Assembly (NCBI RefSeq): GCF_026151205.1 | Contig: NC_087074.1 | Span: forward strand, 10,325,226 to 10,389,225 | Length of the DNA stretch: 64,000 nt | From: Bolinopsis microptera | Taxonomy: Eukaryota > Ctenophora > Tentaculata > Lobata > Bolinopsidae | Direction: 5' to 3' | Shown here: in pieces, positions 15,901 through 57,086 of the stretch | Layout: each line of letters opens with the position of its first letter | Numbering within the stretch: the stretch's first letter is position 1 | Notes under the pieces: model-generated | Told to the model about the DNA's origin: nothing | What the model saw: the letters and a program-made list of their open reading frames with translations, nothing else | The model's database searches: none | Made by a program: the position numbers and the translations under genes

Positions 15901-18900
15901 AACTAATTTATCGTTAACAGCTGTATTTGTTGATCTGACGGCCAATACCTCAAAGTCATATCTACCGCGGTCTGGGTCAAAATTTCGCGACGGCGGCTGC
16001 GGCGAATCGCGGTTGTGCACGTTTCCGTCACCTACCCCTTTTAATAATAATAGGTACATACTAAAATATTATTTCTATAAATCATGCGAGGTTATATATC
16101 CAATATCCATTTTATATATAAAATGGTACGTTACCTTGCTTGGTGTCTCTTTGTATAATAACTTTTGGATATCCGTAGCTCCCTTAAAAGGTTAAAACTA
16201 TCTACGCATCCACCTTACATGTTCTGACTTAATGTTTGATTCTCAATCCATTTTCATTATTTTTGTATGCACCAGCAGAAAGCCCTCCCTCGTACGCTTA
16301 AAATTGCTTAATACCTCTCTTTTATCCTTCTTTCTCATTCAATACATTGTTTATTAAATTACCGTAGAGTGTAGATGGACGAGTTCCGTGGATTACAAAA
16401 CCCGGGTGGAATGGTGTCAAGACTCTTGAAGATTAAATTTATTTATTTAAAAGTTTCCATAGCATTATAAAGACAACAAGTACATAATATGACAGAGACA
16501 AATAATATCCGTAGCCATTAAAAGGTTAAAACTATCTAATTCTATTCATCCACCTTACAAGTTCTAACTTAATGTTTGATTCTCAATCAATTTTCATTAT
16601 TTTTGTATGCACCAGCAGAAAGCCCTCCCTCGTACGCTTAAAATTGCTTAATACGTTTCGTTTATCCTCCTTTCTCATTCAATACATTGTTTATTAAATT
16701 ACCGTAGAGTGTAGATGGACGAGTTCCGTGGATTACATAACCCGGGTGGGATGGTGTCAAGACTCTTGAAGATTAAATTTATTTATTTTAAAAGGTTCCA
16801 AACTCCACGAACTTTTAAAATGTAAAAGAAATTACCGAACTTTCACCGAACTTTTAGCTGATAAAGTAAAAATAATTTATTGTATCGACTGTCTTAATAA
16901 AAATGAGCTCAACTTATTCTAATGTTCATAAATCATTTAACTTTAAGTATTCATTATAAACATTTGGTCACATGTTTTGTACCATTTGTCTCAAGGTGTA
17001 CTCGATTATTAATTTTCAATTTTATAAAACCACTATAGCATTATATTAAAGACAAAAAGTACATAATATGAAAGAGACAAATAAATTGTGATCAAATTCT
17101 GAACTATGGTTCGACACTATCGTATTAAGATAAAGTCGAGACGGTGCGGTCAGCAAAATAGCAACAGTCATATAATATATTGTCTCGCTTTACATATTAT
17201 AGTAAGATATACTTATATAGGGAAGCGTCGTGTGCTGATGCAATGTTCTATCGGCAAGAACTTTGTGCTCGGTATTCTCTCCTTCTCTTATTTTAGTGGT
17301 TATAATTGAACAGATTATGCTTATTGATCGAAACATTTGTTTAACGTTACCTGTAATCGTTTTATTTTGTATATAGTGAGGTATGTAAATATTCGTTTCA
17401 AATACTATCTGAGCTTATTTTGTATATAGTGAGGTATGTAAATATTCGTTTCAAATACTATCTGAGCTACGCGTTATACGTATTCTCCCTTAATTATCAT
17501 CAACATACCAATGTGATTATCTTTGTTTTCGACCACTTCCTTGATCAGATTACCATGTTTCACCTGAGTCACCTGAAAATTCTCATCGGCAATAATTGGT
17601 AATAATTTATGTTCAAAGCAATTTAATGAAGTCAATTACTCATCATTCACTTCTTAACATATCATATTGTGCTGTGGATTGTTGGACTTACCATGCAGTT
17701 TGTTTTGTGAGGTACACATCTACCATGCCGGGTAAACTGCCCTGATGAGGTGCAGGTAATATCACGCATTCCAACCATGACGTACCCTTTGTTACAGCTC
17801 ACTTTTCCAACTGATCCTACCTGGTTCACAAAGTTTAAACCATGTTAGTTTCCGTTACAATATTTGCTGGGTAACGGAATAACGGATTCAATACAATATA
17901 CTGATAATCATTTGACAAATTTGAAATTTGAAATTTTTCCTTCGATTTGTCTTGCTTTTCTCATTCTGCGATACTAAAATTTAATCACGATAATAATAGA
18001 AAATGTGAACGATATTGAACGCAGATAAAAACTAAAAAGGTTTCTGCACAGAATCCCATTATTAAAATGGTCAGTAAGCTTACCACAACAACTCCGGGAG
18101 ATTTAACATGAACAGTTCCGTTCTGTACTGCTGGCAAAATACAGGCTTGTTTGACACACTTAGCTATGGGTCTCCCATCCTTCGTTGTTATTAGTTTGCC
18201 GTCATGGCACTGGCCGCTTTGATAAAGGTTATGCTAAGCAAATAATGCACTTTTCAAAAAGTAATAAACTAGGATGGTCTGTTTTCTGCCAACAATATCC
18301 TTTTATTTAGTAAAACAGTCCTAAAAAAATAAGTTTGGTAACCCTTAATTAATCATATTAAACCATTGACATTAAACGTATTAATTAAAGTAATAACCTA
18401 CCTTGTAACATGACTATTCGGATGAAACCCATGATTACAACGTAAATTGAACTTCTTCCCCGTCTCCAATAGATCTGAAATAGATCAAATAAGTGCAAAC
18501 CCTCTTTGAAATTGAACCCCTACCACTATCTTTGAATCACACAAAGACTGGGTTTAAACCGTTAAACCGTTAGTACACCAGGTGCGCCGGTGCGGTAAGA
18601 ACAATGGCTCATGTGGGAGTGGTGCTATTATTAAAGGTGGCACAGTGGCTCAGGTGTTTGGAAATTAATTTGAACTAATGTTGTTACATCATTATTCACC
18701 TCATAAATTTCTATTCTTCGTCCATCTGAGCGGCCATAATTATTAATTACATGAATTAAAACTAGCGTGTTTTACTATCAATAAATATGATTATGGTGCT
18801 TGGATAAGCATAAAAGTTTGGATAAGCAATAAGCATTAAAATTTCCCACCTTTCACTCCTTTTGTGCAAACCCATAGATTTATCTTACTTAATATTAGGT

Positions 18901-21900
18901 ACTTTAGGCCTAATAGTAACTAGGTTAGGTTGGATCGCTTTTGGACAACAGTATTATATAGTACGTCCTCCAATTACTCCAGTTTCAAATATTTTTGTAG
19001 GTTCCATTCCAAAAGTGAGTTCTATGTGATATTGTATCTTTTGGTTCGCAGGGTATTTTACATCTTAAAGCTAGTTAAGTATTTGATACAAACAGGATGA
19101 TACGTTTGCACATAACCTCAACTTTTTTTGTATCTTAGCTATATGATATATCCTGTCTAGATGTGTATCCCTAATCGCTGCAGGTTGCTTACAGATTGCC
19201 AGTAATTGTTTAGTGCCAAAAGTGCGCGACTTGTTATAATTTAGTTTAGTCTCAACGCCTTTAACTCAGAAACCTTTCCGTAGAAATATTACAAAATATT
19301 ATATTATTATGTTACAAAACAATTGTTACCTTCTCCACGCCAAATCACTGTCTTACGCAATATACATCTTGACTCAAAGACTGACAGCAACATATGAAAT
19401 ATAAGAAGCCACCACAGGAGTTATTAAACATCGCGTGGCTGACAGGATCTGGCGACGTTTCACCGTTGCTAACAGCTGTGGTAGAGCTATTACAAATGAC
19501 ATAATGTGGCCTCCAACACAAGACTCGGAGAGCTAGCCCGGGTTATTACAGACTCTCCCCTAGTTCTAACTCACATCATCATGTCATTTGTAATTTCTTG
19601 AGTTATTATTGTTGTGTGGTGGCTAGCTGTGGTTTGGCTCTCTGAGCGTATTATAGCGTAATTTAGCGTACAGTTATATAGTGTTATTTATGGTTTTGAT
19701 AAACCGTTTGTTTTCGCTGTCCGCTTTTAAAATTTTGCTTAAAGTTAAACCAGGGTAGCATTGATATTGAAGGTCGATATCATTTATATTGTTTAAATGG
19801 GGAAAAAAGTGGAACGAAAATTAATAATTCCCTCAGTTACAAGAATTGCTATAAAAAAGTTGATGGACAAAATCTCTATTAGTATTAAACCTAAAGATTA
19901 CAAACATTAACAGAACGATGAGGTTCCCGAGATTAACTCTGATACGGATCTTCCTTTGTGGCGCCGCAGGTAGTTCATACTACATAAGCCAATGATTGTT
20001 TTATTGATTATTATATCGCCAAATTGAATTAAAGTAATTTTATATGGCACTTAGTTGTAGTTCTTAACAATACTCGGCTGACTCTTCAGTCGGAGGCTTG
20101 GAGTCGAGTCTATATCAGTCGATTTTTATATTATCCATAACTTTGCCTCATTCTGCAGTCCACAACACATGTTGGAAAATCTGATTAACTTTTAGGCAAT
20201 ATTGCCGACTGATAGCTTTTCGCAAAATGACTGATGACGCTGTGGTTTTCGAACCCACGGCGATGTTAAATTTATTAAGTTTTAGAAAGTTTTCCAATGA
20301 ATAAGATAAACCAAATTTCGGATTTGGGTCAACAAATTTAACAATTCTGATAGAAAAATCAACATAAACGAAATTTATTTCAGGACTGTGGATCCTGGAC
20401 ACCACACTAAACATCAGCGACCATCCCAAATCTTACAACGTCAGCCCCACTGAAGATGTAAAGTTCCACCACAAAGCTTATGCATTGCATCCTGATTTTA
20501 ACATACAATCACTCAACGGTGTTAAATTAAAAACGAATCACGACGTTAAGCCACAATCTGTTAAATCCAAATTATTTGATGAAACCAGTGACTCTAATGA
20601 GGACGAAAATGGGAACCAACTGGAGACCAAAGCAGAGAAGCATATAGCGACCAGGATGAAACGAATAAAAACTCTGTGCAATAAAATGGGCGACCCTTAC
20701 TACCACTCATTTCACTTATATTTCTTCCAAGATGTGAGCTCAATCGACATGTCCTGGTGTCCTGTGTTCAAGGCGGGGAGTTCTACTTGGCGAGATTTCT
20801 TTATCGACTATGATGTGGAGCAAGATGAGACCATTAATGTTGCTCACTATCACTTGGATACCCTTCATAAGTTTAATTTAGGTCGTGGTAGAATGGACTC
20901 TCGCAGAGGTCCTAGGAAACTAATATATCCGAGAGAAACTAGTAACAGCATAAGATTCACTGTTGTTAGACATCCTGTATCAAGACTGATAAGTCACCTT
21001 CATAAGGCACAAAATTATCCGTATGAAGTGAAGCGACAACGTGCGATGTGGACCGAGGAGGCCATTGTGAACGCTAGGACAAACTCTTCGTGGGACGATG
21101 AGACTGAAACGAAATACAGACAAGAGTTGACTCAATATGTGGATGAACTTGAGCCTGTAGTGGATCATACTCCCTATTCAAAAGACAATCCATATCTTCA
21201 TCCCCCTTACCCAACTTTTGGGGAAATGATTGACTTTATGATAAAGCACAGAGAACCTAGAGTTGACAATCAAGGAGCAAACGGTCACTGGCGGCCGGCC
21301 GTAGAATGGTGTGACATTTGTAAAAATGATTATGATATCATAATTAAATTGGAAGAGGAACCAGACGAATTAATGGTTCTTCTAAAGAAACTGGATTTGC
21401 TCCACTATAGAGACATTTTTATGAAAAGACATAATTCTTCGAGTAAAAAGTCTATTTCGAAAAAAGAAGTTTTGACAAAATACATGATTAATCTCTTAAC
21501 TGAAAAGCAGATAAAGTTTTTAAACAAAATGTATGAACGAGATTTTGAACTGCTTGGTTACGAGCCAATACCATTACAAGGCTATGAGTTGTAACAGTTT
21601 TTATCATGAGAGAGATACCAACCGAATTCTGTTTTATTTTTTATTGTACAATCGACACATTGATTATTCAAATTAAATGCTTGAACCTGTCAGTGTGACA
21701 TGTTGATTATGTTAACTAAAAGTTACGTACAATCTTCTTTCCTGATAATAGAAACCCAATGTTGTGTCCTCAAAAAACCTGGTGGCATCGGACAACACAG
21801 CCTCATAGTCATAGTATGCTATTAATTGCTTACTAATAAAATTGTCGATCACCAACGCAAAATATTTGAATATAATTCGAATAATTCACCCCTGAACCTT

Positions 21901-24900
21901 AAGTCAAATAGCGAATATTTGAGGTATGCATGCTTCGGAGTTATGCAACCACGACTAAATTTAACCAAACAATCAATATACTCCTCTTTTGTCACTTCTC
22001 TAGCATTTAGTTTTGCGGTGCAAGCAGGATCAGTGACGGAATGAGACGAATTTTTATTCCGATTTTTATCGTCACGTATTTGTTTTGGAAGACATCTCCT
22101 ATTCTCCGTACTCATCTATCCTCAAGTACTTCCATATAATAGGGCAAATAGGTACAATGCTATTAACCGGCTGCTAAGGTAACACTCCCTCATTAAAAAA
22201 AACCCATTAATTTTAGTGCAGTTAAGGCGACTTTTAGTGCAGTTAATAAGTTTATACCGAAAGTTTTGTATTAACTCCACTTACTGGTGTATTAAGTGCA
22301 CTTAGTGCAGTTAATAACTTACTTACTTTGGTTACTTTGGTGTGCTTCATAGAATCCTCTATCGGGTCATCAGAGTTGCTGACCACCCGGACAGCGAGAT
22401 CGCTGCCTTTATTCCACTCCAGTCCAGTAACGAGTTTCCATTTCGACAGCTGTATCCTGCCACTAGAGGCTCATCCGGGAATGATTTCACAAACGTTGTA
22501 AGCATTTCTTTAAAGTCTAGGGGATCTTCGATAGCATGCATGTTTGGTGGGATTAAGTTCCACAATCGAGGTCCAATTACTGCAAACGAATTGTCGTAGA
22601 GCGTTAGGTTGCGCTGACTGCTAGATTTATTTTTGTATCACGTTGTGACCCCTACGGTCGTTTCACTATCGTCCTGACGTCGACGATACAGGGCCGGGAG
22701 CCGCGCACTTCGTGCGTGGCGGGTCATACAACGAATGACAAATTTATTCAGAGTGGGAATAACTGCCTTTTCACTTTTGGCTATGTCGGAGTGTTGCGGA
22801 GAACTGGATGTTGACATCATTTGGGCACATCATTCTAAAAATGATGGTATATCGTTCTTTCATCCGTTGCAACGACATCAAATTTAAGGCCTTGAGTCTC
22901 TGCCAGTAGTTTAGATGCTGTAGGCCATCAATTCTTGTTGTGAACGTTCGCTGAACCCCTTCCAGTTGTTGGACGTCTGCACTCTTGGAAATATTCCATA
23001 AGTGGCAACAGTACTCGAGATGGCTTTTGAGTTCTGATGAGAGATTTGTAAAGGGTCAGCATGGTGACTTTGTTCCTCGTTTTAACATTTAAACGCACTC
23101 AGAACCCAAGCATCAACTTTACGAGTGCACGTTCGGCTAAGGTAACGTGGGGGGTCGCGTCGGGGACTCCAGGATGAGTCAGCTGAAACCATCACCCCTA
23201 AATCTTTAACCACTTTGGAAGGGTATAACATGTTGCTTCTGAAACTTGGTATACTTGGGTTAGGATGGCGAATGGGTGGTCTAGCAAGGTGTTTGAGGAC
23301 TTGATAAATTACTTTTTGAGCCGCGCGGAACGTACGTGCTAACCGGAAAGGGCTGTTAGAAATAGATGGCTGTTAGAAATGCCATTAAAATGGCTGTTAC
23401 ACTTACAGGACACAAATACCTAAAAGCCCTCTAACATCCAGTTAACAGCCGGTCAGCATTGTACTAATTTGCCTGATATAAGACCTGCGCAGTTTGTACC
23501 AATAATTTAAAAAGGGCGTATCCTACAACACCACCTCACCAAATATAAACTCATATCCTACCAGCACCACCTCACTGGATACCAACTCAGGTCATTGAAC
23601 TAACTTCACGTTTTTATTCTTCCCGCTGTCCAGTGCGTGCCAATAGTTTGTTTGCCTATCTTACATACCTACCTGTCGGAGCTGTCTCTCCATTTGTTTC
23701 CAGTTAACAACACCACTAACACCACTAACACTACTAACACCACTACACACTAACAACACCACAGTTCATAGTTCAGGATTTCTATTGAACATTTTCAAAC
23801 CGAATTTCCCTCTTTTTTGAAAGGTCTGTATAAACGTTTGGGCGAAATTCCGTAACTGTAAGTGGTGGATAATACTTGTTAGAACCCATCTTGAACCCCC
23901 TCCTCATGGTTGTGCAATTCGTTCATGCCGAATTGCTGAATTGTTTTTAGCATACTGCCGAATCGTGTTTTCGCGTATTTTACGAAGATTTTAGCTACTC
24001 CTTTTAGCTATTCTTACTCAATTTGATCAATGAAAACATTCGGTATAATCGTCCATGATCAGTCATTGTTTTGCCCTACATTTCGTAGTTTCCGAAATTT
24101 CAAATGCCGAATTATTGACGGACTGTTTTTCAAAACCCAGATTGGCGGTATATTTCTAAATTTGGAAACAAATTGCAAAACTATGGTTTGGGACCCGTAT
24201 TAACAGTGCTAAAATTTCCACACAGTTTAGCTTCTCATAAATAACGAACAGTTGAAAAATCGATTAGATATTTGATTGTATTAGACAGCTATTAAGCGAA
24301 TAACCTCCACTCCATCTTATTCTTCACAAATCATCTTCTCAAATACCATTTTTTCCTTTTAACTCCAGTACGTACCTCACCCGTCACCGGACATAACGTC
24401 ACTGCACTAATCGCATACATGTTTATACTAGTGAAGTCAATCCCGATGTCGGGAATTCCCGATCCCGGGATTTTCCGACCATTTTTGGCCATTGAAATTC
24501 CCGACCGGGAAATTTTTTTATTTCCCGAATTTCGGGAAATTTTATGCAATGTAATTTTAAACATTTTAGCGCCTAGATTAGCTTGCTAATGCTCGAATCT
24601 ACGATGCTAACGCTGGGTAATAAATGATCATGATATAACACTCATCTTGACATACGTTGCATGCCACTTTTCGCGCACGTGTTGTAAAATATGCGCGCAT
24701 CTATGATCTAGCAGCTAGCTGCCTGATCCGACCATTTTGTTTTCAGTTCTGTGGAGTTTGGTTGCTTTGCTGCGCGCGAGTTGGTTTCGTTTACACGTCA
24801 ATTGATCATTCCGACTTTATTACTTTTTGCAAACAAAGCTAGATGTCCGAGTCTAATGCGAATGCAGGTGACGATGTAGAGTAAAACAAAGTATTTTAGT

Positions 24901-27900
24901 AAAACAAAGTATTTTATTTATTAGCAGTGCAATCAATTCATATGATATAATTATAAGAATATAATAGTATGTCACACCTATTTAACTGTTACGTTTGAGT
25001 AGTCGTGCCATGGCTAAATTTAACTAGGACCAGTGGTGTCGATTAACATTTAATAGGTGTTAAGAAGTTCTTGAGGTCCAAGATCACTCTCAAATTCAAA
25101 ATGATTCTTCTTTGCTTTCTGTGACTCATAGTGAAACCACCAACACCGAACAATTCTTTTCAGTTCCTTTAAAAAAAATGTTCTGCTGCTTGTCAGTAGT
25201 TCGAAAAGGGACATGGACCCAAGTTAGGATTTGCTCAATGTAAACACTGTTCGAAAGTTCTAAAGACTAGAAAATTCTAATCAAAATTGCAATTGACACT
25301 ATCATCTATACTGCTTCAAGTACAGTTTTATGAAACTCGTAGTCGAACTCCAGGATTGGCACCATTTGTTTTTAACAAACTTTCAATGTTCGGAAATCCC
25401 GATCTCCGGAAAATTCCCGATTTTCGGGAATCCGGGGATTTATTTCGGTCGGGATTCCCGAATCCCGGGATTTTCAAATGAGATAGTGAATGACTTCACT
25501 AGTTTATACTTTACAGTTTCTAGTTCGTGCTGTATCGTCTCCTTTAATTGTAAACATGCGGGATAACCGGATAATAGTCCGTTAATTAGTAATAATAATC
25601 TGAGCTATCAGCTAATCGCTTCCCGGTTATCATAACTTACAAGATTTATAAGTTTCGTAAAGTTAATAATCTAATATAATTTCATGTGGTGTCATAGAAC
25701 CTTGTTTACATGAAAACTATTTTCAGTTCAACCGAGTTTTGAATCTTGATACAGATACCGATTTTAGTATTTTGAGAAAGTTGTGTAGTCAGTAGAAATT
25801 AGAAATTAGAAATTAGAAATTAGTATATTCAGTACTGTACATTCTTTATGGTACTGCGATCAAAATTTTAAATTATGATTTATACTAAAAAAGCAGTCAA
25901 TATTTCAGTTTACAGTATGAAAAGATGCTCAAACTTCGCCCTCTTAAAAATAACCCTTTTGGCTATAGCTATAGGAGGTAAGAATTAACTCACTTATTTC
26001 AGGTATTATTATTACGTTATTTAAGGGGACGTACACCAAAACCGTTCATGATTATTCTCGGCTAATGACCTTATATTTGGAAAATATAGACAACAGCAAC
26101 AAGTTTGGGCACTTTTTAAAAACTCGCTAAAAAAAATTTGATACAGTAACCTACTCAAACCTTATTTCTCAAAAATTGCTTAGTTCAAATATTATTTTAT
26201 GTTTTATAAAAGTATATAAATTTTAAATTTCAGGATTGTGGATCCTGGACTATCAATTCAATTTCATATCGGAACTTATCATCGGAGACGAGCTTGCAGC
26301 AATAGAATTGCACAATCCGACTGGGGAAATAAAGTTACCTATTTCAAAGTCTACCGTAGCGTCAAGTCAAAGATTTGATATCAAAAGCATGGTTACACAA
26401 ACTAAAACCCCTTTTACCGGTATTTCTGAATATGATCAATTAACGAACGAAGTAGAAAAGCAGTTGGAGTATGATGATAATCTGTCCTTCGCAAAATCCA
26501 TTAAAACGATTAACGAAGTCAACGAAAAGTTTAAAACCCATCATATGAAACCGGGCAAGAAAGAAGAACAGGCACGAAAATCGTTCGAGCGAATGGGAGC
26601 GGAGGAGCGAATAGCAGCTAGAATGAAAAGAATAAATACACTCTGTGAGGACCAAACCTATCCAAACTTCCATAATTTCAATTTCTACTTCTTCAAAGAT
26701 TTTGGCCCCAAAGGAATCACTTGGTGTCCAGTATTTAAAGCGGGTAGTTCTACTTGGAGAGATTTCTTTATCGACCATCTTGTGGAACCAGAAGCAACCG
26801 TTCAAAATGAGCATTACCACCTAGGCCTCCTTTCCCAATTTGACGTTGGTCATACTTACACTTATACTGAAAGGATCACCCCAGTAGAATCCAAGTATCG
26901 AAATTATCAGAGAGAAACCAACGGTAGTGTACGATTCACTGTTGTAAGACATCCCCTATTTAGACTGATAAGTCACCTTCATAAGGCACAAAACTATCCG
27001 TACGAGGTGAAGCGACAACGCAAAATGTGGACCGAGGAAGCCATTGTGAATGCTAGGACAAACTCATGGTGGGACGATGAGACTAAAACAAAATACAGAC
27101 AGGAGTTGACTCAATATGTGGATGAACTTGAGCCTGTAGTGGATCATACTCCCTATTCAAAAGACAATCCATATCTTCATCCCCCTTACCCAACTTTTGT
27201 GGAAATGATTGACTTTATGATAAAACACAGAGAACCTAGAGTTGACAATCAAGGAGCAAACGGTCACTGGCGGCCAGCCGTAGAATGGTGTGACATTTGT
27301 CAAAATAATTTTGATATCATCATTAAATTGGAAGAGGAACCAGACGAATTAATGGTTCTTCTAGAGAAACTGAATATGCTCGAGTATAAAGATGATTTTA
27401 TGAAAAGACATAATTCTTCAAATAAAAAGTCACTTTCGGAGAATGAAGAATTGGAAAATTATATAAAATTCCTTGATGAAAAGCAGATAAAGTTTTTAAA
27501 CAAAATGTATGAACGAGATTTTGAAATACTTGGTTATGAGCCAATACAGTCACAAGGCTATCCGTCATAGCAGTTTTTATTTGTTTAAAAGATATATTTC
27601 ATTACTTACTTTTGATCAGTCTTCAGTAATATTCTTACGTGGAAATTGTCATTAATAGAAATTGAATGAACAACAATTAACTTCGCAAATTTGTAATGAG
27701 TTAGCCAAAAAACAGCTATTCTGCCAAACTGGATAAAACACCATGGCGGAATAATATTATCCACGGTTTGTGGAGCTTGATACAGACAGATATTATACCA
27801 GCCCTTATTCAATCTTGTTGGCCGTGTCTTAGTGGACTAAACTGCGAGAGAAATTTGACCTACCTCCTTATATGGGCATGTCACGTGATCAAATTAAAAC

Positions 27901-33900: not shown

Positions 33901-36900
33901 GCATCGCATTCAAGGACAAAAGAAAATCGCGATTATTTAGGCCAAAAATCAAAGCGCCGCGACAAGCGAAACTAGGCAAAATCGTGGCGAAAATCTCGAA
34001 AATCGCAGCAAAAAATAATGTATTTGCACGAATTGAATTATGAATTAGGGGTACACTGGTTTGTGTGGGTAATGACTTGCTAGTTGGTTTGTGTGTACGA
34101 CTTAGAGGTGGCTACTTAGAGGTTGCGGTATGTTGCCAGCATTATGGCATCCTTCGTATAAGTTTTTCACTATATCACTATGTTCGTAGAAATATTTCCT
34201 TTACCCTCATGAGTTTTCGTCCATATTGTGTTCGCAAAGGTATGTTATAAAGTTATGATATAGATTAAGTGTCTTAACAATTGATCAATGTTCTCATTAA
34301 GTTCCAAATCTCACTTAACAAATTTATCGCGGGGAATGAGAAAAATAGCGATTCCGCACGTGCCGCGATTTCCTTTTGACCTTGATCGCATTTCACAAAG
34401 CAATCATGATAAAAATGGCGTAGATGGGCGTGGTTAAGGCGCCACTTGGGTTTCATTTCTTCTATTTTACTTTGTTTATGTTCTAGTTATACTGATGGCA
34501 TCAAAACAAGCTTATTTTGGGAATTTGTATCAGGTCCAACTTACACGGTTTGACGTGAGGTTAGACGTGTTCCACCTCAACTCACTCAAGGTATAGAAAG
34601 TTAATTACCTTAGTACACTTCAAACTGTCCTTCTCTCTCAGCTAATTTATAATTATATTTCGTGTTTATGCAGCACTTATATCTTTTTTTTTAAATAGTA
34701 AGGTTTAAAAATCCACATATTATGCAATATGCAACTTATATTAGCATATTGCAATTAGTGAAGTCAATGTCGATCAAAATAATCAATCCCGGGATTCGGG
34801 AATCCCGAGCAAAAAAATCTCGGGATTCCCGAAAATCGGGATTCCCGAAAACCGAGAATTTCAAGGGATTCCCCGAAAATCGGGATTCCCGAAAGCAAAT
34901 GGCTCCCATTTTGTGTATCATGTCACAAGAAGATACCAAAAGTGTCATCATTAACCTTCTTTTCTCAAGTAGTACCTTAATAAGACTACTATTGCACAAA
35001 CAACTTGGGCCCATACCATTACGAAATTTTGTCTGCGTTCTGTCATCTGTTGAAAAGGTTCGCCCAGGCTCAATCGATCAGGACGGCCTGACCGTTTTTT
35101 ATAGCGGCGTCCATAAATACTAGCATCTTCCCCTTAACCTCTGGTTGGGAGAAACATCAAACAACTCATCTCCATTTTAATAGAGATACGTGTTGGTATT
35201 TTAGATGGAGCTTCAGAGTTCAGCATTCAGGACTGCTGGATCGGATGAACCTTTTGTTTCGTCTAGAAACTCATATAGTTTTATTTTTGTTTTTCTTAAC
35301 CTTGACGATACAGGCTAACAGTCTCCACGACGTTCGAAAACCTGATTAACGCTACCGTGTAACTTTAATACAAATATTGAAAATTCCCGAAAATCGGGAA
35401 TTGTGAAAATTTCCCGGTCGGGAATTCCCGACCGAAAATCGTCGGGAAATCCCGGGATTCGGGAATCCTCTTGTCGGGATTGACTTCACTAATTGTAATA
35501 CCCTTAGTTTTATATCAGAATAATGTAATTAATGTAATTTTGCATAGTTACAATATAACGCTTGAGTTCTTATGTGTGATAATTGTAACTTGCTCTGATT
35601 GATATGCTCACTTTTAATCAGTGAGTGTCATCACCTCTTTATCTGTGCAACACATTTAATTTAGAAGACTAGCCTAATTTCTTAATTTAGAAGACTAGTG
35701 TCTAGCCTAATTTTTCAGTTCAGACAAATGATATGTGTTACACACACATCATTCTCATTATTGCTTTATTGAATTCTGCAATTTTTACTCTCCCCAGGTC
35801 CCCGATACCATTTTACTTCCTCCTTGTATTATATGGCCAATTATCCATAGCAACGTCATTAAATAAGTTTTCCTCTGTACTTGTATCAGTAACCCACACT
35901 TTTTAACCTTGGCTCCATAATATGAAAGAGCTGTTTTAATCATTAATGAAAGGCTAGTATATGTACAATGTACATTTCGGCCTACTTTCATGTGTTTGTT
36001 TTATTTTCTGTACATTTTTAAATTTGTTTAAATTTGTTTTGTACATGATTTATTCAGATCGTTGTTTTGAACTGCTTACCAAGTTTTCTTTTGACAAGCA
36101 AGTGCAGAGTGTATCGTAGATTTTAAATATTTTGTGTGGTCTGTACTGGAATGATTAACTTTCTTTTACACTTCATGATTCTTTTTCCATGTTTCCACGT
36201 CATCGTTTATTTATACTAGCAGGAACCCGTCTAACCCTTAAGTGGTGTCAAGACTCAAGAGACTAAATGAATTATTACCTATTTAATTGGCGTTTTTGAC
36301 ACCACTTGGGGGTCCAAATTTTGGACACTAAAATTGTTATTTCTTGGAAAAGTTTTTATTTTTTCATGCTGATTTGAAGGCCATCATTTGACCCAGTCAA
36401 AAAAGTTCAGTTTTATATCTTTTACGGTTTTTGCGAAAAGTCGCGTTAAAGTTGATGCCGTGGTGTCAGTAAAATGGTACGGATATATATCGTCTCGCTT
36501 TATATTATATAGTAACACCCCAGTTCCACAGTCGGATATTATGCCAAATTATTAGACGGAGATCGTCTACTGATATTTTTCCGGATATTTCTCCGGTTTG
36601 CAGTTCCACGACCTTATCCGGAGACCATCTACGGTACATTTTACTGACGAAACAAAACAACCCTACAATACAGCTAATTCGCCCGCGCGCGTTGGTCTCC
36701 GGGAATTAATCATCTCCGGAGATGATCTACGGGAAACGGACCTCCGTCTAATAATTTGGCATAATATCCGGCTGTGGAACTGGGGTGTAAGATTTCATTT
36801 AAGTGTAAGTGTATGTTACTTGTTAAAGGTATACTTTACTTTTACTTGGCCCGTCACCCTTAGGGGCAGCTAGGACAAATAATTTTTATTTAATTTGCGT

Positions 36901-39900
36901 TTGCCACCACATTGGGCGTACAATTGTGCACTAAAATTGTTTTTTGAAATGTAATTTTAAGTGTTGAGTATTTACATAATAAGTTCAGTTGTTTTTTTAC
37001 ATTTATTTAGAAAAATCTCAAATTTCGTATTTGTGTTGGAAATGTACGGATATACTAACGCACTTAAAGTTAAATAACACCCCAGTTCCACATCTTTATC
37101 CACTTTCAGCCACGGACTTGAGAGTATCTGGTCGCGTTGATATATGTGCCGGCGCGCGCGGCTGACCGGAGACCATCTGGTAAGATGTTTTACGCCGAAA
37201 TCAAGCATACATCAGCAATTCGGTAGCGCAGAGGACCGGAATAATCTTCGGAGGTCTACTGGGAACATCCCCCATTTGTCCCTGTCTGTTTAAGATTATC
37301 ATAATTAAAGCTGATGATGTAAAGGATGCCATCCGTTTTGATACTTAAATGTTTACTTAGTGTTAAACACGAGCGAGGTTATATTATTATTCTCCGTTTA
37401 TTTTACTCATTCTTTTACTAGTTACAGTCCGTTTCTAATTTATTACTATGTAATTTACTAGGTACTTTCTTCACATATTTTATTCAGGTATTTTATATTA
37501 TAGCTGTAGTTATTTTCTTATATTATCACATTTTAAATTTTAGTAACTTAAGAGTAGTTTTACAATTGTAGCGTAGCATGATTGTCAAGCTATGTAGTAA
37601 TTGCATTAGTGCAGTAAATGATATTTCTTGATTTGTTTACTTTACAGCTCACTAGTATGTAACCAGAGCGACAAGCTTGAACTGGCTGGAGGGGGTCCTC
37701 CAGCATAGCAAATTTGTGTTTCATTGTTTGACCAGGGCTTAAATAGTAATACTAAACACACGGAACTCTGGTTTCCTTATCTGGATAGGTATGAACAAAT
37801 GTTTTTTTGGATTGTTTATACTGAAACCACACTGTTTTACACTATGATAATTAAGAATAATCGAAAAATGCAGTTATTAAAATTTCAGTTTACAGTATGA
37901 GGAGGTTTTCAAGGATCAGTCTCATAAAAATGATACTTTTGGTAGCAGGAGGTAAGAGTCAACTTACTTTTATTTGAACTTGTATGTATAATGCTCTGAT
38001 CATGCCTTTACATTTGAATATTTATAATCATGGCTCATCGCATGAAACAATATCAAATCCCGATAAGTCATGTATTTTATCATAGCACCATTCATGACGT
38101 AATTTCTTATTTCAGGATTATTGATCCTGAACTATAATAATTACTACAACTTTACGTCAGAGCTTATCATAGAAGACGAACCTGTAAAAAGAGAATTGCT
38201 CAGCCAGGAAGAGGAAATACATTTACCTATTCCAACGTCAATTCAAGGATTTGATATCAAAAACATGATCGAACACCCTAAGAACCCTTCTATCGATAAA
38301 AAAGAAACCATTGACTTGATTGACGAAGATAAAGTAAATATTCAGAACCATCATAAGAAAGAGGATAAGAAAGAAGAACAGGTTCGTATACCTTTTTATT
38401 CTGAGCCAATAGGAGCGGAGGAGCAAATTGCAACTAGAATGGAGAACATCAATGAACTCTGTAACTCTGATTCAATGAAAATGCATAGAAAAGATTCAAC
38501 ACATCGAATATTAGGTAGGCGCAGTTTATATTTTTTCAAAGACTTTGGCCCCAAAGGAATCACTTGGTGTCCAGTATTTAAAGCGGGTAGTTCTACTTGG
38601 AGAGATTTTTTTATCGACCATCTTGTGGATCCAGATGCAACCGTAGGAAATGAACATTACAACCTTAGCCTCCTGTCCAAATTTACACTCTCACAGTTAC
38701 TCAGACAGTTACGCAAATCCAAAAATCACAAATCCAAAGATCACAAATCCATTTCCAAAGATCTAGTAGTAGATGAGACAGAGGTAAACAATAGCATACT
38801 TTTCACGATTGTAAGACACCCTGTTTCTAGATTGATAAGCTACCTTCACAAGGTACAAAATTATCCTTTCGCGATGAAGCGACAACGTTTAACTTGGACC
38901 GAGGACGCCATTGTGAGCGCTAGGACAAACTCATCATGGGATGATGAGACTAAAAAGAAATACAGAACAGAATTGACTACATATGTGGACGAACTTGAGC
39001 CTTTAGTGGATCATGCTCCCTTTTCAAAAGACAATCCTTATCTCCATCCGCCACATCCAACTTTTGTGGAACTGGTTGACTTTATTATAAAACATAATAC
39101 AGGAGGAAAGGGTGACAAAAAAGGAAGAAACGGTCACTGGCTGCCGGCCGTAGAATGGTGTGACATTTGTAGAAATGAGTATGATATCATAATTAAATTG
39201 GAAGAGGAACCGGACGAATTAATGGTTCTTTTAGAGAAACTGGATATGCTCCAGTACAAAGAAAGTTTCATGAAAAGACATAATTCTTCAAGTAATAAGT
39301 CAATTTCGGAGAAAGAGTTGATTGAGCAATATGTAAATCTTTTGAATGAACAGCAGAGAGAATTTTTAAATAAAATGTTTGCGAAAGATTTTAGATTCTT
39401 TGGTTATGAGAAGATTCCATTATAATTCACCAAAAAAGGTGTTCGCGTAATTTATATTCTTTATTTGGTTTTATTTTAATTCGAAATTTATTTTCTTAAA
39501 ATAATGATATGTGACTTCCTTTCGAAAACGGGTGCAGGATCATATCCACAAATAAGTTCACTGGGGAATTAGGCTATAAGATCATGAATAAAGCGTATAC
39601 GGACACGTTCATTTGAGTTTGAGGATATTGCTAAACAAAAATAATAGCGTTTTCGATGATAATGGCTTAATTTAGGGGTAAATGATTTTTTACCTTAATG
39701 AGGTCAATTCTGTCACATTATATGAAATTTGAAATTTTGGGTGAATTGCTGAAATCATTTATATCTGATTTTGGTTTGGAAGGCTCTATATAAGGAGATA
39801 CAGTTGATTCAAGCTAAGGGCAGTTGATGGTAACATTGTCACAAAATGTTACGATTTCTTGCCCCTATTTTGAAGAACGATACCTCGATTAGAATTCAAT

Positions 39901-42900
39901 ATTCTTCCAAGAATGATTCGTAGCAAATCAGAACCCGTGTTTAACAATAATGAGTTTGATTTTACTAAGTTACCGAAATGTGGCGAAGTTCACTTTTCCT
40001 GCCCCAACAGTATAAATTCAATGTGATGAAAAATTGCCATGGGTTTTTATATTTCCTGCATAAATCAATTCCAACTATAATAAGGCATGTTGATGTGAAT
40101 GAAAATCTATCTAACTTATGCAATGACTGATGTGACAACATTTACATTTATTGCCCCTGTTTGAAGAACTATACCTCGATTAGAATACAATGTTACCTTA
40201 TCATCAGGCTTGTCCGCCGTCGCTAAATGGATCGGCGGCGGCGTTTCACTAAAATTACACCGGCGGCGGCGGCGTACGCCGGCGTGAGCCGTGAAATCAA
40301 GGCCAACTAAATTGAGGTCTATGAAATATGAATATGATCATGTACTTAATTTGGATAATTTAGACTTAACTTCAACAAATGATGTTGGTATATTGTTATG
40401 GTATTATCTGCTATCAAATAAAAGTTGAGACAAATTGATACAATTATTTTATTTAAGGTAAAATACATAAACAATAAATTATTGCTGAAATCAATGGATC
40501 TCTCAATCTTTTTTGTTGGAAACAAAATCATAGTTTTTAGAACAAAACAGTGTATAGATTTGAAATTCTTAACATTCATCCTAGATCGCTGACTAGAAAG
40601 AATTAAACCTGCAGCCGACCAGGTTCTTTCAATTTCCGCACTACTGGCAGGTTATACAATGCACTATTCTTACTATGTTTGAGAGTATTAGGGAAGTTTT
40701 TTGCCTATCGGCCCAAAATCTTAAAAGTTCGGATTGTAAAATTTCTTCTTCAGTCAAACTTATGAGTAGGTATCTGCTCAGTTCTTCTGATAATCAATAT
40801 TGTTAAGTTAGCTAAAAGTGTGTATCATGTGTGTGTTGCCCCTAGCCGCTAATCGCTATCAGTAACACTGATATATCTTCAAATGAAGACAGAATTATTT
40901 TGAAGTCAGAAAATGCACGCCGTACGCCGATGTACGCCGGGGTGTATCGGCGGCGTTCGGCGTGGCAAAATCACCCGGCGGCGGCGGCGTTCGGCGGCGG
41001 CGGACAAGCCTGCTTATCATCATACCAATGTCGATAAAAAAGGAGCAAACAGAGTTATATTATGATTTCTTTGTGACGAAATTTACATGTTTTTACCATT
41101 TATCAAGTGGACCAAAGATGCCTGCTCTGGACTTGGTACCACAGAAAAATTCAAGTCAGCCCAGAACGCCGCTCAATTCAAAGAAAAAGTTGATTCTCTT
41201 CTTCAAACTGATATTTCCTCCCCTGACGACATTCGCAGTTTCAATGAAATTGTGATTGCCACCTTTATTAACCTGGCAAGTCAAGTTACCACCCAGAAAA
41301 GTGGAAAGCCCAGTACTAACAAAAACAAATGGTTTGATTGGAGTTGTAGGCATGCTAAACGATTAGTCTGTAGAGACGAAAGAGCCAAGAATAGCACCCA
41401 CATCGATCCTATGCTCGTGGAATCCAACCGAGCAAGATTTTACCTCCGTAAGAAAGAATACAGGGCACAAACACGAGCTAGAAAGGGAGCTTACCTATAC
41501 AAAGTTAACGAAAAAATCAACCATAGCAACAACATCAACTGGGCTGCTTTAAAAGACCTCTCGTCCGCTTGCAAGGACCCTGATACATTCGACATATATG
41601 ACCTGGTCACATTTCACAAGTTCCTATACAATCAGAAGTGCAAGGACCCCTCGCACGGTGGACTACAAACGAACACTTCGACCAACGAAGCTGGTGAACA
41701 GGGAACCGAGTACCACCGCGAGCCATCAGTCGAACTTGAAAAACTCAACACAGAGTTTACTATCCAAGAACTGGAGAAAGTCACCAATAAGCTCCAGAAT
41801 AACAAAAGCGTTTCATGTGATCTTATCTCCAACGAGATGCTCAAGAGCTCCAAACTCGGTCTCCAAAAAGTCCTTCTGAAACTATTCAATGGTTGCCTAA
41901 CGCAAGGAATCTACCCATGGAACTGCTCAATAACTACCCCCCTACACAAGAAGGGGGACAAGCAGAACCCCGATAACTATAGAGCAATCACAGTCGGAAG
42001 TTGCCTTGGAAAACTCTCTGCATCCCTCCTCCTTGATAGGCTGATCGAATTCCGTAAAGTCGTGTGTCCCGACTTCCCTCACCAACTAGGATTCAGAGCT
42101 GGTGCCCAGTGCTCTGACCATATCCTGACCCTTACAACGATCATCGAGAAGTATACAAAGAAGCTGAAGAAGAAAATATTCGCTTGTTTCGTGGACTATC
42201 GTAAGGCGTTCGACACAGTCTGCAGGGATGCTCTCATGTACAAACTCAGTACACTTGGTATCGGAGGAAGCTTCTTCTCTTGCCTCCAGAACATGTACAG
42301 CAACTCAGTTACCCGTATCAAACTGAGCAAGAAGCTGTCGGACACCATCGATGTCACCATTGGTACCAAACAGGGGCATCCAATGTCTCCGGAGCTCTTC
42401 AAGATATACATTTATGACCTCTCCATTAGACTAGCAGCTCTTGAGGACATGTCAACACCAGAACTGAACGGCTTCTCGGTCAGCAATCTTCTGTGGGCAG
42501 ACGACCTGATACTTTTGGCACTCGACGCCAGGCTTGTCCGCCGCCGCCGAACGCCGCCGCCGCCGGGTGATTTTGCCACGCCGAACGCCGCCGATACACC
42601 CCGGCGTACATCGGCGTACGGCGTGCATTTTCTGACTTCAAAATAATTCTGTCTTCATTTGAAGATATATCAGTGTTACTGATAGCGATTAGCGGCTAGG
42701 GGCAACACACACATGATACACACTTTTAGCTAACTTAACAATATTGATTATCAGAAGAACTGAGCAGATACCTACTCATAAGTTTGACTGAAGAAGAAAT
42801 TTTACAATCCGAACTTTTAAGATTTTGGGCCGATAGGCAAAAAACTTCCCTAATACTCTCAAACATAGTAAGAATAGTGCATTGTATACCTGCCAGTAGT

Positions 42901-45900
42901 GCGGAAATTGAAAGAACCTGGTCGGCTGCAGGTTTAATTCTTTCTAGTCAGCGATCTAGGATGAATGTTAAGAATTTCAAATCTATACACTGTTTTGTTC
43001 TAAAAACTATGATTTTGTTTCCAACAAAAAAGATTGAGAGATCCATTGATTTCAGCAATAATTTATTGTTTATGTATTTTACCTTAAATAAAATAATTGT
43101 ATCAATTTGTCTCAACTTTTATTTGATAGCAGATAATACCATAACAATATACCAACATCATTTGTTGAAGTTAAGTCTAAATTACCCAAATTAAGTACAT
43201 GATCATATTCATATTTCATAGACCTCAATTTAGTTGGCCTTGATTTCACGGCTCACGCCGGCGTACGCCGCCGCCGCCGGTGTAATTTTAGTGAAACGCC
43301 GCCGCCGATCCATTTAGCGACGGCGGACAAGCCTGCTCGACGCCAATAGCCTGCAGAAACAACTTGATTGCCTGCACGAATTTGCAAGTAAATGGGAACT
43401 GTCAATTAATATCGACAAAACCAAAATCATGGTATTCAACTCAAGCTCTCGTTTGCTGAAGTGCTCCTACGGGTTCAAACTAGGGAACCTGGACATCTCA
43501 TCGGCCAAATCTTACTGCTATCTAGGCATTCAATTCAGTCTCAACGGTTCATTTAAAGGTGCCATGAACGAACTAAGGAAAAAAGCACTAAGAGCATTTT
43601 TCTCGATCAGACGCATGGTCGACACTCGAGCATTAACAACAAAACCATGCTCAAGCTTATAGACAGCCTCGTTAAACCAGTCGCTACGTATGCCTGTCAG
43701 ATATGGCTACCGTGTACAAAAATGGCAAAGGAGATGGCTTGCGCTGATGGTTCAAGACAGAACCTTGCTAGAGCTGCAACAAAGGACGCACTTGAGACAA
43801 CACACCTGAAAATGCTGAAGTGGGTGCTCGGCTTACACAAGAAAGCTAACAACAACTTCTGATACGGAGATACGGGCAGGTTACCATGGGCCCTGTCGGT
43901 ACTACCACAATGCCTGAGATACTTCGACAGATTGTCTCAGACATCACCTGACGTGAGCAGCGTCAACTTTCTTGTACATCAGACATTCCAAGAGCAGAAG
44001 AATCTAAACCTCTCTTGGTATAAGATCTGGAACTCGATCGCTCAGTCTGAATCCAAAGCGGCCAAATTCGCTCGAACCGACCAACACAGAGCAGATGGAA
44101 CGACCTCAACTGCACATGGAAATTTGGTCGATCACTTTGTAAAAGATTGGAGAACAGATTATTGAGAGAGGGAGATACACAAAAGAAACTGGAACGTGGA
44201 CGAGAGCCTGCAGATTCTGCTGCAACAAGGAGAACGTTCAAGGCTTAGAATATCTCCCCTTTTTCGAAGGAACAATCATTGAAAATGAAGAACACTGCCT
44301 CACTGAATGTCCAATGTACCACTCAGCGAGACTTTCACTGTCGGACAACCTTAAGAGTCTTCTGCTGCTCAAGGAATACGGAGCTATCATGAATTCTGCC
44401 CATGTGCAAGAACTGGGCAAATTCCTTTGCAACTGTCACCGCATCAGGAACCCGAAAAAGACGCCAATACTGCCTGTCACCCCATCAGGACTACCAACTC
44501 AACAGACATAATACAGATCAACCATCATTATGCAGATATTACGATCTGTTGTACGAGCATGGAACACTAGTGATTACTGTTTCCAGTACGTTGTGACTGT
44601 GAGTGGGAGGACTGTTCGAGTATGAATGTGTCTTTTGTGGACTCGAATATTGATTTCGCAGTTTAGTGATCATTGAAGTTGCCTTTTACTACTTCCTCTT
44701 ATGTTAAATTATTATTTCAGCAATTATTTCTATTTCGGTTGTTTGTACGGGAGTTAAATTTTAAGTGCTTTCGTTTTAAATTTTCATGATTCTTGAAATT
44801 CGAATTTTACTCACTCTAGGTATGTTACTCATTCATGTATAGTCGAGACGATGGTGTTAGTGCCAGCTCCGACAACTTTACGTTTAATTCCGTTTAATTC
44901 CGTTTAATTCCGTTTAATTCCATGATGAGATGTTATAATTGTGCCAATGTTAACATATTACTGACACATAATCATTTATATGACCGGTGTGCGGTTGAAA
45001 TATTGTTAATTGATCCATAGTACGTACTATAGGGTGTTTAAGTTGGTATACTAATATTTGCTCAATTTCACACATGTTGAGATATCATAAAAATATATCT
45101 GACAAAGTTTGCCTAGAGGATGAGACGATTATCCCAACCATTGAGGGTTTATATAATTTCATAGTGTGACAAATTTTACCTCGTCGTGCCATTTAATAGG
45201 GCCACTAATATTTACCAATATCCTCAAACTTCAATGAACGTGTTCAATATCCATATATCAAGCTTTTCAGTTGCAAAAGAAATTTAACAAACCTTGTTTC
45301 CCAAGATTTGACATTCCAAGGAGCATAACACCGTCCTGAACTGTAGGGACCTGGCACGACGACAGCTTGTTTATACAGCTCCCTGGGGTTGGATCTAGTT
45401 CCCCTCCGTGTTTGCATAGTGATGTTGTTGCTCCCTGTCATACAAGGGGAGGGATAAATTGAAAATCGTAAAGGCATTTAAGGTATATAACTTATAAGCT
45501 GTTAATATTGTACAATTGTTAAGATTTAGGACTCCTGAACTTTCCAGGACATTCTTCCGGTGATAAGTGATGGATAATTAAATAGGGACAGTCACTAATA
45601 CTAATTAATACCAACCGAAGGAACGAAGCCGTGGTGACAACGAAGGATCGCTTCCTGGCCCACCTTCGTTAATCGTGGTATGACAGATCCACTTCTAACT
45701 GTTGGGGCTTTACATTGCTTACTTATGCACCTGCAAGTAAAGGCAGGACAGTCGACTAAATGTGTATATCATCGATTATGGTATGATAAAGATTTACATT
45801 GCATTCGCATCAGAAAAGCAAAATTAAAAATGTACCATAGAAGTATTTTTGAAATGACTTACGATCCAAGGGGTACATGATCATTGCAAGATACATATCC

Positions 45901-50697: not shown

Positions 50698-50834
50698 CTG
50701 AAATATAAAACCATGGTTAATGGTCATTGATCACAATGGGGCGTACATGACTTTTAATAAGTTTTCTGATCAATTAGGAGACTTTTGAATTAGACATTGA
50801 ATACCGAGACTTTCAAAGAGACCTCATCTAGAAC

Positions 50835-51260
50835 TATAATATATATATACTAATAATATACGCTAATCTAACTGCGTATAATGCGATTACACTATTTATT
50901 GCACGAGGCGCAGCCGATTGTAAATTGATATAATAATCGCACGAGGCGAAGCTGAGTTTGATTATTGCAGTTATTTCACAAGGCGCAGCCGAGTGCAATA
51001 ACTGGTGTAATCGCATCATACATGCAGTTAGATTCGCGCATAACTCCACGCTTCTGGTGTTATAATTAGTGCGATTAGTTTATAATCACACCGACTATGT
51101 TGTTATATACGCTAATCTTACTGCGTATAATACGATTACACTATTAATTGCACGAGGCGCAACCGAGTCTAAATTGATACAATAATCGCACGAGGTGAAG
51201 CCGAGTTCGATTATTGCAGTTATTTCACGAGGCGCAGCCGAGTGCAATAACTGGTGTAAA
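50835..51260. repeat. Two copies of a CGAGGCGCAGCCGAGT-type palindromic repeat
   Basis: Segments 50855-51030 and 51105-51257 are diverged copies sharing ACTGCGTATAAT, TTGCACGAGGCGCA and CGAGTGCAATAACTGGTGTAA. Each contains alternating inverted halves (TGCAATAA/TTATTGCA), so both can fold. Non-coding, probably MITE derived. Confidence 0.7.
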
Positions 51261-52835: not shown

Positions 52836-52845
52836 CCCCCCCCCC

Positions 52846-53325
52846 TTAAGCTACAAACCTATATTTGATTAAGCTACAAACCTATATTTGATTAAGCTAC
52901 AAACCTATATTTGATTAAGCTACAAACCTATATTTGATTAAGCTACAAACCTATAGCTATATCTGATTAAGCTACAAACATATATCTGATTAAGCTACAA
53001 ACCTATATTTGATTAAGCTACAAATCTATATTTGATTAAGCTACAGACCTATATTTGATTAAGCTACAAATCTATATTTGATTAAGCTACAAACCTATAT
53101 TTTATTAAGCTACAAACTTATATTTAACTAAGCTACAAACCTATATTTGATTAAGCTATTAACCTATATTTGATTAAGCTATTAACCTATATTTGATTAA
53201 GCTACAAACCTATATTTGATTAAGCTATTGACCTATATTTTATTAAGCTATTAACCTATATTTGATTAAGCTATTAGCCTATATTTGATTAAGTTACAAA
53301 CCTAAATTTGATTTAGCTGCAGGTA
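52846..53325. repeat. 23-bp minisatellite, about 20 copies
   Basis: Tandem copies of TAAGCTACAAACCTATATTTGAT with variants in which CAAAC is replaced by TTAAC. Four to five more units lie at 51937-52031, between the arms of the adjacent foldback block. Non-coding. Confidence 0.95.
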
Positions 53326-56959: not shown

Positions 56960-57086
56960 ATTTCATGCAGCAACGCATACAACATGGAATACTGGGAGTA
57001 GTGTACTGGCTTCAAGATTTGCACTACAAACATGTCCACCACATTGAGTTTTTATCACAGCTCATTATTCCCCAGAGCTTTTATTG
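56960..57086 (+). promoter_or_regulatory. Conserved leader or promoter block of glycosyltransferase A
   Basis: About 125 bp from TTTCATGCAGCAACGCATAC to CCCAGAGCTTTTATT are conserved in front of glycosyltransferase B (60740-60868), although the intervening DNA differs. In gene A the block is followed at once by GGTGAGTTAG, a good 5' splice donor, and the coding exon starts after a TTTTTAG acceptor 1.08 kb later, so it may be a non-coding first exon. The corresponding donor is not obvious in gene B. Confidence 0.55.

What the first reader, a model, noticed from the sequence alone, without database searches (positions are those of the whole stretch)
18475..45292. Array of four sulfotransferase genes nested inside one intron of an opposite-strand CCP/VWD gene
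Exon 45293-45434 (minus) ends in phase 1 halfway through a CCP domain with only its first cysteine. The next minus-strand CCP exon, 18402-18474, starts in phase 1 and supplies exactly the missing half (second cysteine followed by HGF). The joined domain has all four cysteines with normal spacing. The 26.8 kb between them holds four complete plus-strand sulfotransferase genes plus several mobile elements. A tandem gene family growing inside an intron of an antisense host gene is unusual and raises questions of transcriptional interference and co-regulation.
Basis: partly seen in the sequence, partly recalled or inferred. Interest (0 to 1): 0.85.

Follow-up and report, generated by a model that had tools for sequence, protein, structure and literature searches.

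The report
Sulfotransferase gene cluster inside another gene
Four related enzyme genes sit inside one giant intron of a large gene, probably for a secreted protein, that is read from the opposite DNA strand; gene-inside-gene arrangements are already known to be common in animals, but this is a clean example whose founder enzyme gene probably lost most of its own introns.

Summary
Exon 45293-45434 (minus) ends in phase 1 after the first cysteine of a CCP domain; exon 18402-18474 starts in phase 1 and supplies the second. The 26,818 bp between them hold four intact plus-strand Sulfotransfer_2 genes of two exons each. New evidence for one host gene: both halves of the split domain independently pick the same domain (45.6 kb) as nearest relative among the CCPs compared, and no phase-1 partner found inside the intron scored as well. 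This supports the reading at DNA level; no transcript was available.

The nearest relative by identity in the same genome (chromosome C9) has ten exons. The nested genes keep only its first intron and lack the other eight, as expected if the founder lost introns through reverse transcription before tandem duplication. The fuller tree groups C9 with the nested genes (97/98), favouring loss, but rival groupings are not rejected.

The genome looks like a ctenophore, probably Bolinopsis (inferred). Nested intronic genes are abundant in a ctenophore (PMC8527503), and a multigene nested cluster is known in the Drosophila dunce intron (PMC10835880). It is a well-supported new member of a known kind.

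The parts
48193..50716 (-). host gene, long exon: ShK domain plus ten CCP (sushi) domains and a low-complexity linker; exact 5' limit of the exon and the host's start codon not found
   Evidence: (ShK E=9.2e-10)
45613..47995 (-). host gene, seven further exons with short introns; CCP domains at 47.9, 47.3, 46.9, 46.6, 45.9, 45.6 kb
45293..45434 (-). host exon before the giant intron: end of the 45.6-kb CCP and first half (C1) of the split CCP; ends in phase 1
18475..45292 (-). 26,818-bp host intron holding the array
19918..21594 (+). sulfotransferase gene ST1, exons 19918-19969 and 20384-21594, 420 aa
25917..27570 (+). sulfotransferase gene ST2, exons 25917-25977 and 26234-27570, 465 aa
32451..33975 (+). 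sulfotransferase gene ST3, exons 32451-32505 and 32675-33975, 451 aa
37897..39425 (+). sulfotransferase gene ST4, exons 37897-37951 and 38116-39425, 454 aa
40205..43335 (.). mobile DNA in the intron: reverse-transcriptase fragment flanked by two inverted copies (40205-41012, 42528-43335) of a ~0.8-kb element
18402..18474 (-). host exon after the giant intron: second-cysteine part of the split CCP, phase 1 in, phase 2 out
17692..18216 (-). host exons 18084-18216 (weak acceptor) and 17692-17820: end of the split CCP and the next CCP
9614..15452 (-). host gene, further CCP exons (fifteen profile stretches; some exon borders unsettled)
7131..8566 (-). host gene, VWD and C8 domains over about five exons; 3' end of the gene not found
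   Evidence: VWD E=9.7e-08, C8 E=4.5e-13

Best explanation
One large minus-strand gene for a probably secreted ShK-CCP-VWD-C8 protein (found from 50.7 down to 7.1 kb; both ends of the gene not located) contains a 26.8-kb intron. Inside that intron, on the other strand, lie four tandem genes for Golgi-type carbohydrate sulfotransferases (PF03567). Most likely history: one member of a multi-exon sulfotransferase subfamily lost all introns but the first, by recombination of a cDNA with the gene or by copying from a partly spliced RNA. This intron-poor gene came to lie in the host intron and was duplicated at least three times there; neighbours probably exchanged sequence by gene conversion, and mobile elements enlarged the intron. 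The host still splices across the whole array. Shown from sequence: exon phases, the split domain, four intact coding frames with Ka below Ks, the intron pattern. Inferred: splicing in vivo, direction of the intron change, order of events, a neutral rather than regulatory reason for the nesting, and the glycan targets.
For: Splice sites and phases fit. Both half-domains, ranked separately, have the same best match, the 45.6-kb domain: first half 42 against next 27 and joined domain 82 against 59, among 26 domains; second half 64 against 46 among 31 second halves, whose four nearest all lie on the far side of the intron. Shuffled halves reached the score 0 of 2000 times each, and 0 of 500 for the second half with the maximum over all domains. 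No phase-1 acceptor found inside the intron does as well. Four intact ORFs, Ka/Ks about 0.32-0.52 in 6 of 6 pairs. The C9 gene has 10 exons with GT-AG introns and shares only intron 1 with the nested genes; three of its introns (I6, I7, I8) recur at the same place and phase in two C13 relatives. In the catalytic part C9 is 50-56% identical to the nested genes and 36-39% to C13; in the fuller tree C9 plus nested has support 97/98. Longest shared third-position runs exceed shuffles in 3 of 6 pairs, p 0.002 or less.
Against: No transcript evidence. A CCP first half carries little signal: donor 45293 ranked 16th of 182, behind at least two donors inside the intron and behind the best plus-strand control. 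Acceptor 17816 also completes the domain. The C1-C2 spacing is long, and the acceptor of exon 18084-18216 is weak. Neighbouring domains in this gene are not usually each other's nearest relative: 6 of 62 neighbour ranks are 1, mean rank 11.1 of 31; and with only the C2-C3 part, two of the four nearest lie on the near side. The unconstrained gene finder chained both blocks but put implausible exons in the gap at one setting and joined 45293 to 15452 at the other. Twelve hydrophobic start codons, four with a phase-1 donor, were listed in 18475-22000; I judged none convincing, but a separate start is not excluded. For intron loss: AU tests do not reject C9 plus C13 or nested plus C13 (p 0.35 each; 0.49 and 0.19 with a smaller set), and single-exon genes are common among the more distant relatives. 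The nested genes as one clade have 80/97, 35/85 and 86/94 in three trees. Three of 6 pairs show no long shared run, and uneven constraint could mimic conversion.
Confidence: 0.82

Rival explanations
1. Two separate tandem CCP genes on the minus strand, with the sulfotransferase array simply intergenic.
For: No RNA evidence joins the blocks; the gap is 76 times the longest of the ten other introns measured; a C6 copy carries the 5' block without the junction in the 40 kb read; the first half of the split domain is weakly informative by HMM.
Against: Each gene would end or start in mid-domain: no equally good phase-1 partner was found in the gap, and the two orphan halves are best explained as one duplicate of the 45.6-kb domain. 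The C6 copy breaks off inside the exon, at 45408, while the window exon runs on intact, so it looks like a truncated copy.
Confidence: 0.13
2. One gene, but the 26.8-kb interval is an assembly misplacement (array or 5' block wrongly placed).
For: The block 45408-61382 has a second copy on C6 whose coding parts are frame-broken with many single-base indels, a sign of poor local assembly there or of decay.
Against: The window copy is frame-intact, the exon crosses the duplication edge without a break, the stretch 17600-19800 as a whole was found nowhere else (about 170 bp of it are repetitive), and the window holds no N.
Confidence: 0.05
3. On the origin of the array: the nested genes are an ordinary mRNA retrocopy (processed retrogene) that landed in the intron.
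For: Eight of nine introns of the C9 relative are missing.
Against: Intron 1 is retained at the same place and phase, and an acceptor-like AG stands just before the start codon as in C9, so the copy does not start like a mature mRNA. Poly(A) tail and target-site duplication were not looked for.
Confidence: 0.25
4. On the origin of the array: the nested genes show the old, intron-poor state and the C9/C13 relatives gained introns.
For: More distant PF03567 genes in this genome have the catalytic domain in one open frame, and AU tests do not exclude the needed grouping.
Against: It needs about eight gains, three of them before C9 and C13 separated; C9 is more alike to the nested genes than to C13 and groups with them at 97/98.
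Confidence: 0.17

Closest known systems
Nested intronic genes of the ctenophore Hormiphora californensis (PMC8527503; passages read)
   Same: Genes lying within one intron of another gene; 2357 such genes in 1654 hosts, 1109 of them beside a mobile element; the Figure 4 legend describes four genes nested in one host, two of them doubly nested.
   Different: The passages read say nothing of a tandem family; I did not check whether this host or array exists in that species.
Sgs4 and four ng genes inside an intron of Drosophila dunce (PMC10835880; passages read)
   Same: A cluster of nested genes in one host intron; three of the ng genes resemble Sgs3 but lack its intron.
   Different: Short threonine-rich protein genes of an insect; here Golgi-type enzymes with one intron kept, all on the strand opposite to the host.
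LRRTM genes nested antisense in alpha-catenin introns (PMC3933685; abstract read)
   Same: Opposite-strand gene in one large host intron; the authors' model is translocation into the intron.
   Different: One nested gene per host; by that model family growth was by duplication of the gene pairs, not by a tandem array in one intron.
C9 sulfotransferase gene of the same genome (G000:C9:14678501-14684500, locus L065)
   Same: Same subfamily, same first intron, same core motifs.
   Different: Ten exons against two; no second copy was seen in the 6 kb read.

Membership tests
Nested intronic gene | guest lies wholly within one intron of another gene | tested here: met
   at gene-model level only:
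Nested intronic gene | host transcript is spliced across the guest | not testable with these tools
   no RNA data
Nested intronic gene | guest makes its own transcript | not testable with these tools
   only indirect: intact frames and Ka < Ks in 6 of 6 pairs
Sulfotransfer_2 (PF03567) sulfotransferase | profile match over the curated cut-off | tested here: met
   4 of 4, 68.7-79.4 bits against cut-off 22
Sulfotransfer_2 (PF03567) sulfotransferase | PAPS-binding motifs (motif recalled, from no call) and N-terminal membrane anchor | tested here: met
   CPVFKAGSST and RHPxxRLIS and a hydrophobic first exon read by eye in 4 of 4; binding and membrane topology not tested
CCP/sushi host protein | sushi domains with four cysteines | tested here: met
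   Pfam Sushi E=7.3e-17 with three stretches on the joined piece; own profile finds 35 minus-strand stretches over 9 bits, some of them halves
Processed retrogene | no introns, mRNA-like ends | tested here: not met
   intron 1 kept in 4 of 4; tail and target-site duplication not tested
Reverse-transcription-mediated intron loss | run of adjacent introns lost from the 3' side, 5' intron kept | tested here: met
   introns 2-9 of C9 absent, intron 1 present, in 4 of 4 genes
Reverse-transcription-mediated intron loss | introns were present in the ancestor | tested here: inconclusive
   favoured by shared intron places in C13 relatives and C9 plus nested at 97/98; rival groupings not rejected

The most novel reading that the evidence does not exclude
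The antisense array acts as a switch on the host: transcription of the sulfotransferases across the 26.8-kb intron decides whether the host RNA ends early, giving a short ShK-CCP protein, or is spliced through to the VWD-C8 form. The array would be one spliced-leader-resolved transcription unit. This would couple glycan sulfation to the form of an extracellular-matrix or immune protein.
Probability: 0.05. Interest if true: 0.75.

Novelty: new member of a known kind. Interest (0 to 1): 0.4.

Why it matters
It is a compact natural case in which three processes can be read together: birth of a nested gene, one-sided intron loss, and growth of a gene family inside another gene's intron. If the genome is a ctenophore's, comparison with other ctenophores would date each step. 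It also warns annotators: a gene finder with a cap on intron length would split this host in two.

Tried and rejected
A home-made gene finder (codon usage plus generic splice matrices) chained both CCP blocks at the penalties tried but put spurious exons into the gap or skipped real ones; I do not count it as evidence.

HMM score of the joined domain as sole proof: rejected, because the first half carries almost no signal.

The C6 duplicate as an independent witness of the junction: rejected. It ends at 45408 inside the exon beside a short tandem repeat and has 122 indels in the exon stretches compared, 116 of them frame-breaking, so it is a pseudogene or an unpolished stretch.

A distant multi-exon gene on C1 (L068) as outgroup for intron positions: it has no intron at the I6 site, so it does not help to date that intron.

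Solved structures for ST4: none up to E=1. Rfam (gathering threshold) and tRNA searches of the window: nothing. Spliced-leader motif AATTTGAGGT in the window: none.

Rows dropped: five CCP domains with unsettled first halves (15.3, 12.3, 12.0, 11.6, 9.9 kb) were left out, and two of the 26 used were incomplete (14.1, 11.4; one X placed in 14.1). In one search my ORF filter kept 15 of the 30 fetched PF03567 loci and so left out L001 and L002, which were among the better single-exon matches; searches used seven of the 15. L063 (C1), with the highest single match outside the array, is only a piece and was in no tree.
Full report
WHAT WAS CHECKED. The claimed junction is exact. On the minus strand exon 45434-45293 is open, ends in phase 1 and is followed by GTTTGT; exon 18474-18402 is preceded by TTTCAG, takes one incoming base and is followed by GTAGGT. 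The domain is completed by a third exon, 18084-18216, which supplies C3 and C4; its acceptor is weak. The interval is 26,818 bp, against 132-353 bp for the ten other introns measured between 50.7 and 17.7 kb (borders set by hand).

ONE HOST OR TWO GENES. If the CCP blocks were two genes, the first would need the second half of a CCP, and the second gene a first half plus a start, all within the gap. The 18474 exon completes the domain at 16.3 bits. Of 193 phase-1 acceptors with a cysteine inside the gap the best gave 9.7; in the other two phases, which do not fit, the best gave 14.8 and 11.2. With two-exon combinations (563 single and 964 paired candidates) the best inside the gap was 14.3, and a plus-strand control gave 9.9. 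The same scan showed that 17816 completes the domain even better (45.8 bits), so a form that skips exons 18084-18474 is possible; it spans the array too. The reverse test was not decisive: joined to the 18.4-kb half, donor 45293 was 16th of 182 at 17.8 bits, and the best of 116 plus-strand controls had 19.0. A separate start near 18.5 kb is not excluded: 12 hydrophobic start codons, 4 with a phase-1 donor, were listed in 18475-22000.

THE INDEPENDENT TEST. I asked separately which of the window's domains each orphan half resembles most. The first half (at 45.3 kb) picks the 45.6-kb domain among 26 (score 42, next 27). The second half (at 18.4 kb) also picks the 45.6-kb domain (64, next 46, among 31 second halves), and its four nearest are all on the other side of the intron. 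The joined domain picks it too (82, next 59). Shuffled halves never reached these scores: 0 of 2000 for each half, and 0 of 500 with the maximum over all domains for the second half. Against this: using only the C2-C3 part, the 45.6-kb domain is still first (50, next 38) but two of the four nearest are on the near side; and neighbouring domains are in general only mildly alike (6 of 62 neighbour ranks are 1, mean 11.1 of 31). The simplest reading is one domain, a duplicate of its upstream neighbour, now cut by a giant intron.

THE ARRAY. Four plus-strand genes, ST1-ST4, each with a short exon (start codon and most of a membrane anchor), a phase-1 intron of 164-414 bp, and one large exon. All four pass the Pfam Sulfotransfer_2 cut-off. 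They are 55.8-73.6% identical to each other. Ka is below Ks in 6 of 6 pairs. Synonymous divergence is patchy, and the longest shared runs at third positions exceed shuffles in 3 of 6 pairs, p 0.002 or less, while the other three pairs have p 0.13, 0.80 and 1.00. This suggests gene conversion; uneven constraint could contribute.

WHERE THE GENES CAME FROM. The own genome (G000, 264.65 Mb, window at C3:10325226-10389225) gave 82 family matches at E up to 0.001. Searching with ST4 gave 31 matches, four of them the array itself. Outside the array the best single match was a piece on C1 (47% identity), and the pieces of highest identity (40-65%) lay together on C9:14.68 Mb; distant single-exon genes (29%) also matched. 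The C9 gene resolves into ten exons with GT-AG introns. Its intron 1 has the same phase and lies at the same point of the membrane anchor as the intron of ST1-ST4. Introns 2-9 are absent from all four nested genes. Three of these (I6, I7, I8) recur with the same place and phase in two C13 relatives. Loss from the 3' side with the 5' intron kept is the pattern attributed to reverse transcription and recombination (PMC3488318, passages read). In the catalytic part C9 is 50-56% identical to the nested genes and 36-39% to C13; nested and C13 share 37-41%. A first rooted tree left the grouping open (C9 plus nested 50/83). With 16 single-exon outgroup rows C9 plus nested has 97/98 and the nested genes 86/94, but AU tests still do not reject C9 plus C13 or nested plus C13 (p 0.35 each). 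Loss is favoured, gain not excluded.

THE INTRON'S OTHER CONTENT. A reverse-transcriptase ORF lies at 41066-42646. Two inverted copies of a ~0.8-kb element, 40205-41012 and 42528-43335, differ by one substitution and one indel, each sit between 9-10-bp direct repeats, and have 40 further matches at about 38 places (40 of 68 candidates scored). So the perfect-looking inverted repeat is two recent insertions, not a palindrome of the array.

WHOSE GENOME. Contigs C1-C13 make up 258.07 of 264.65 Mb (97.5%; lengths, sum). A published leader motif of a ctenophore has four exact copies within 83 kb on C13, and 254 matches with up to two mismatches against 124 in the reversed control. Bolinopsis microptera is reported with 13 chromosome-scale scaffolds holding 97.23% of the bases (PMC10232365, passages) and 265 Mb in 346 scaffolds (PMC11797021, passages); G000 has 232 contigs. 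I infer a ctenophore, probably Bolinopsis. This is not proven.

COMPARISON. Nested intronic genes are known and abundant: 2357 in 1654 hosts in Hormiphora, 1109 of them beside a mobile element (PMC8527503, passages). A review holds that such genes mostly accumulate neutrally (PMC3488318, passages). A cluster of genes in one intron, three of them lacking an intron of their relative, is known in Drosophila dunce (PMC10835880, passages). Antisense nesting is known for LRRTM (PMC3933685, abstract). Interference between nested genes and hosts has been studied in human cells (PMC3192792, abstract and outline). Searches of the paper library for nested tandem genes and for ctenophore sulfotransferases (8 of 14 papers listed, none opened) showed no description of this locus in the listings; that is a limited search.

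VERDICT. Observation confirmed, nested reading supported at DNA level, mechanism of origin plausible with loss favoured but not proven. A good example of a known kind.

Noticed in passing
window 45408-61382 and G000:C6:11803705-11820686 (L052-L054): A second copy of the host 5' block and the GalNAc-transferase region lies on C6 at 90-92% identity. It starts abruptly inside the host exon, and in the 45408-52125 part has 224 indels against 360 substitutions, with 116 of 122 exon indels frame-breaking: pseudogene or unpolished assembly.
   Followed up: partly
window 40205-43335: Two inverted insertions of a ~0.8-kb repeat element with 9-10-bp target-site-like repeats, on either side of a reverse-transcriptase fragment; one copy appears to cut the reverse-transcriptase frame.
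   Followed up: partly
window 58169-59749 and 60933-62156, plus a fragment at about 75.4 kb (beyond the window, L058): Tandem plus-strand genes, the first related to beta-1,4-N-acetylgalactosaminyltransferase 1 (PDB 9h6j, E=8.8e-11), both with a ricin-type lectin match below the cut-off. GalNAc transferases beside a sulfotransferase array may be a glycan neighbourhood.
   Followed up: no
0-4 bases upstream of the start codons of ST1-ST4, both GalNAc-transferase genes and the C9 gene: An acceptor-like AG stands just before the ATG in 7 of 7 genes (scores 2.5-8.1; 26% of 2054 ATGs of the window reach 2 within 15 bases): 5' UTR introns or spliced-leader trans-splicing.
   Followed up: partly
G000:C13:12796643-12894453: A cluster of ctenophore-type spliced-leader motifs (four exact and three with one mismatch, all on one strand, within about 98 kb).
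   Followed up: no
window 54399-56199 and 47499-47687: A 58-bp minisatellite with 31 copies upstream of the host exons, and a perfect 19-bp repeat of about ten copies inside a host intron.
   Followed up: no
window 16300-16800, minus: Two alike stretches each reading like a CCP piece without its cysteine (PSHPGYVIHGTRPSTLYG and PFHPGFVIHGTRPSTLYG): perhaps a duplicated dead exon of the host.
   Followed up: no
window about 18880-19056: A repeat of about 125-175 bp with some 40 listed relatives in the genome at 72-85% identity, in the giant intron close to the host acceptor.
   Followed up: no
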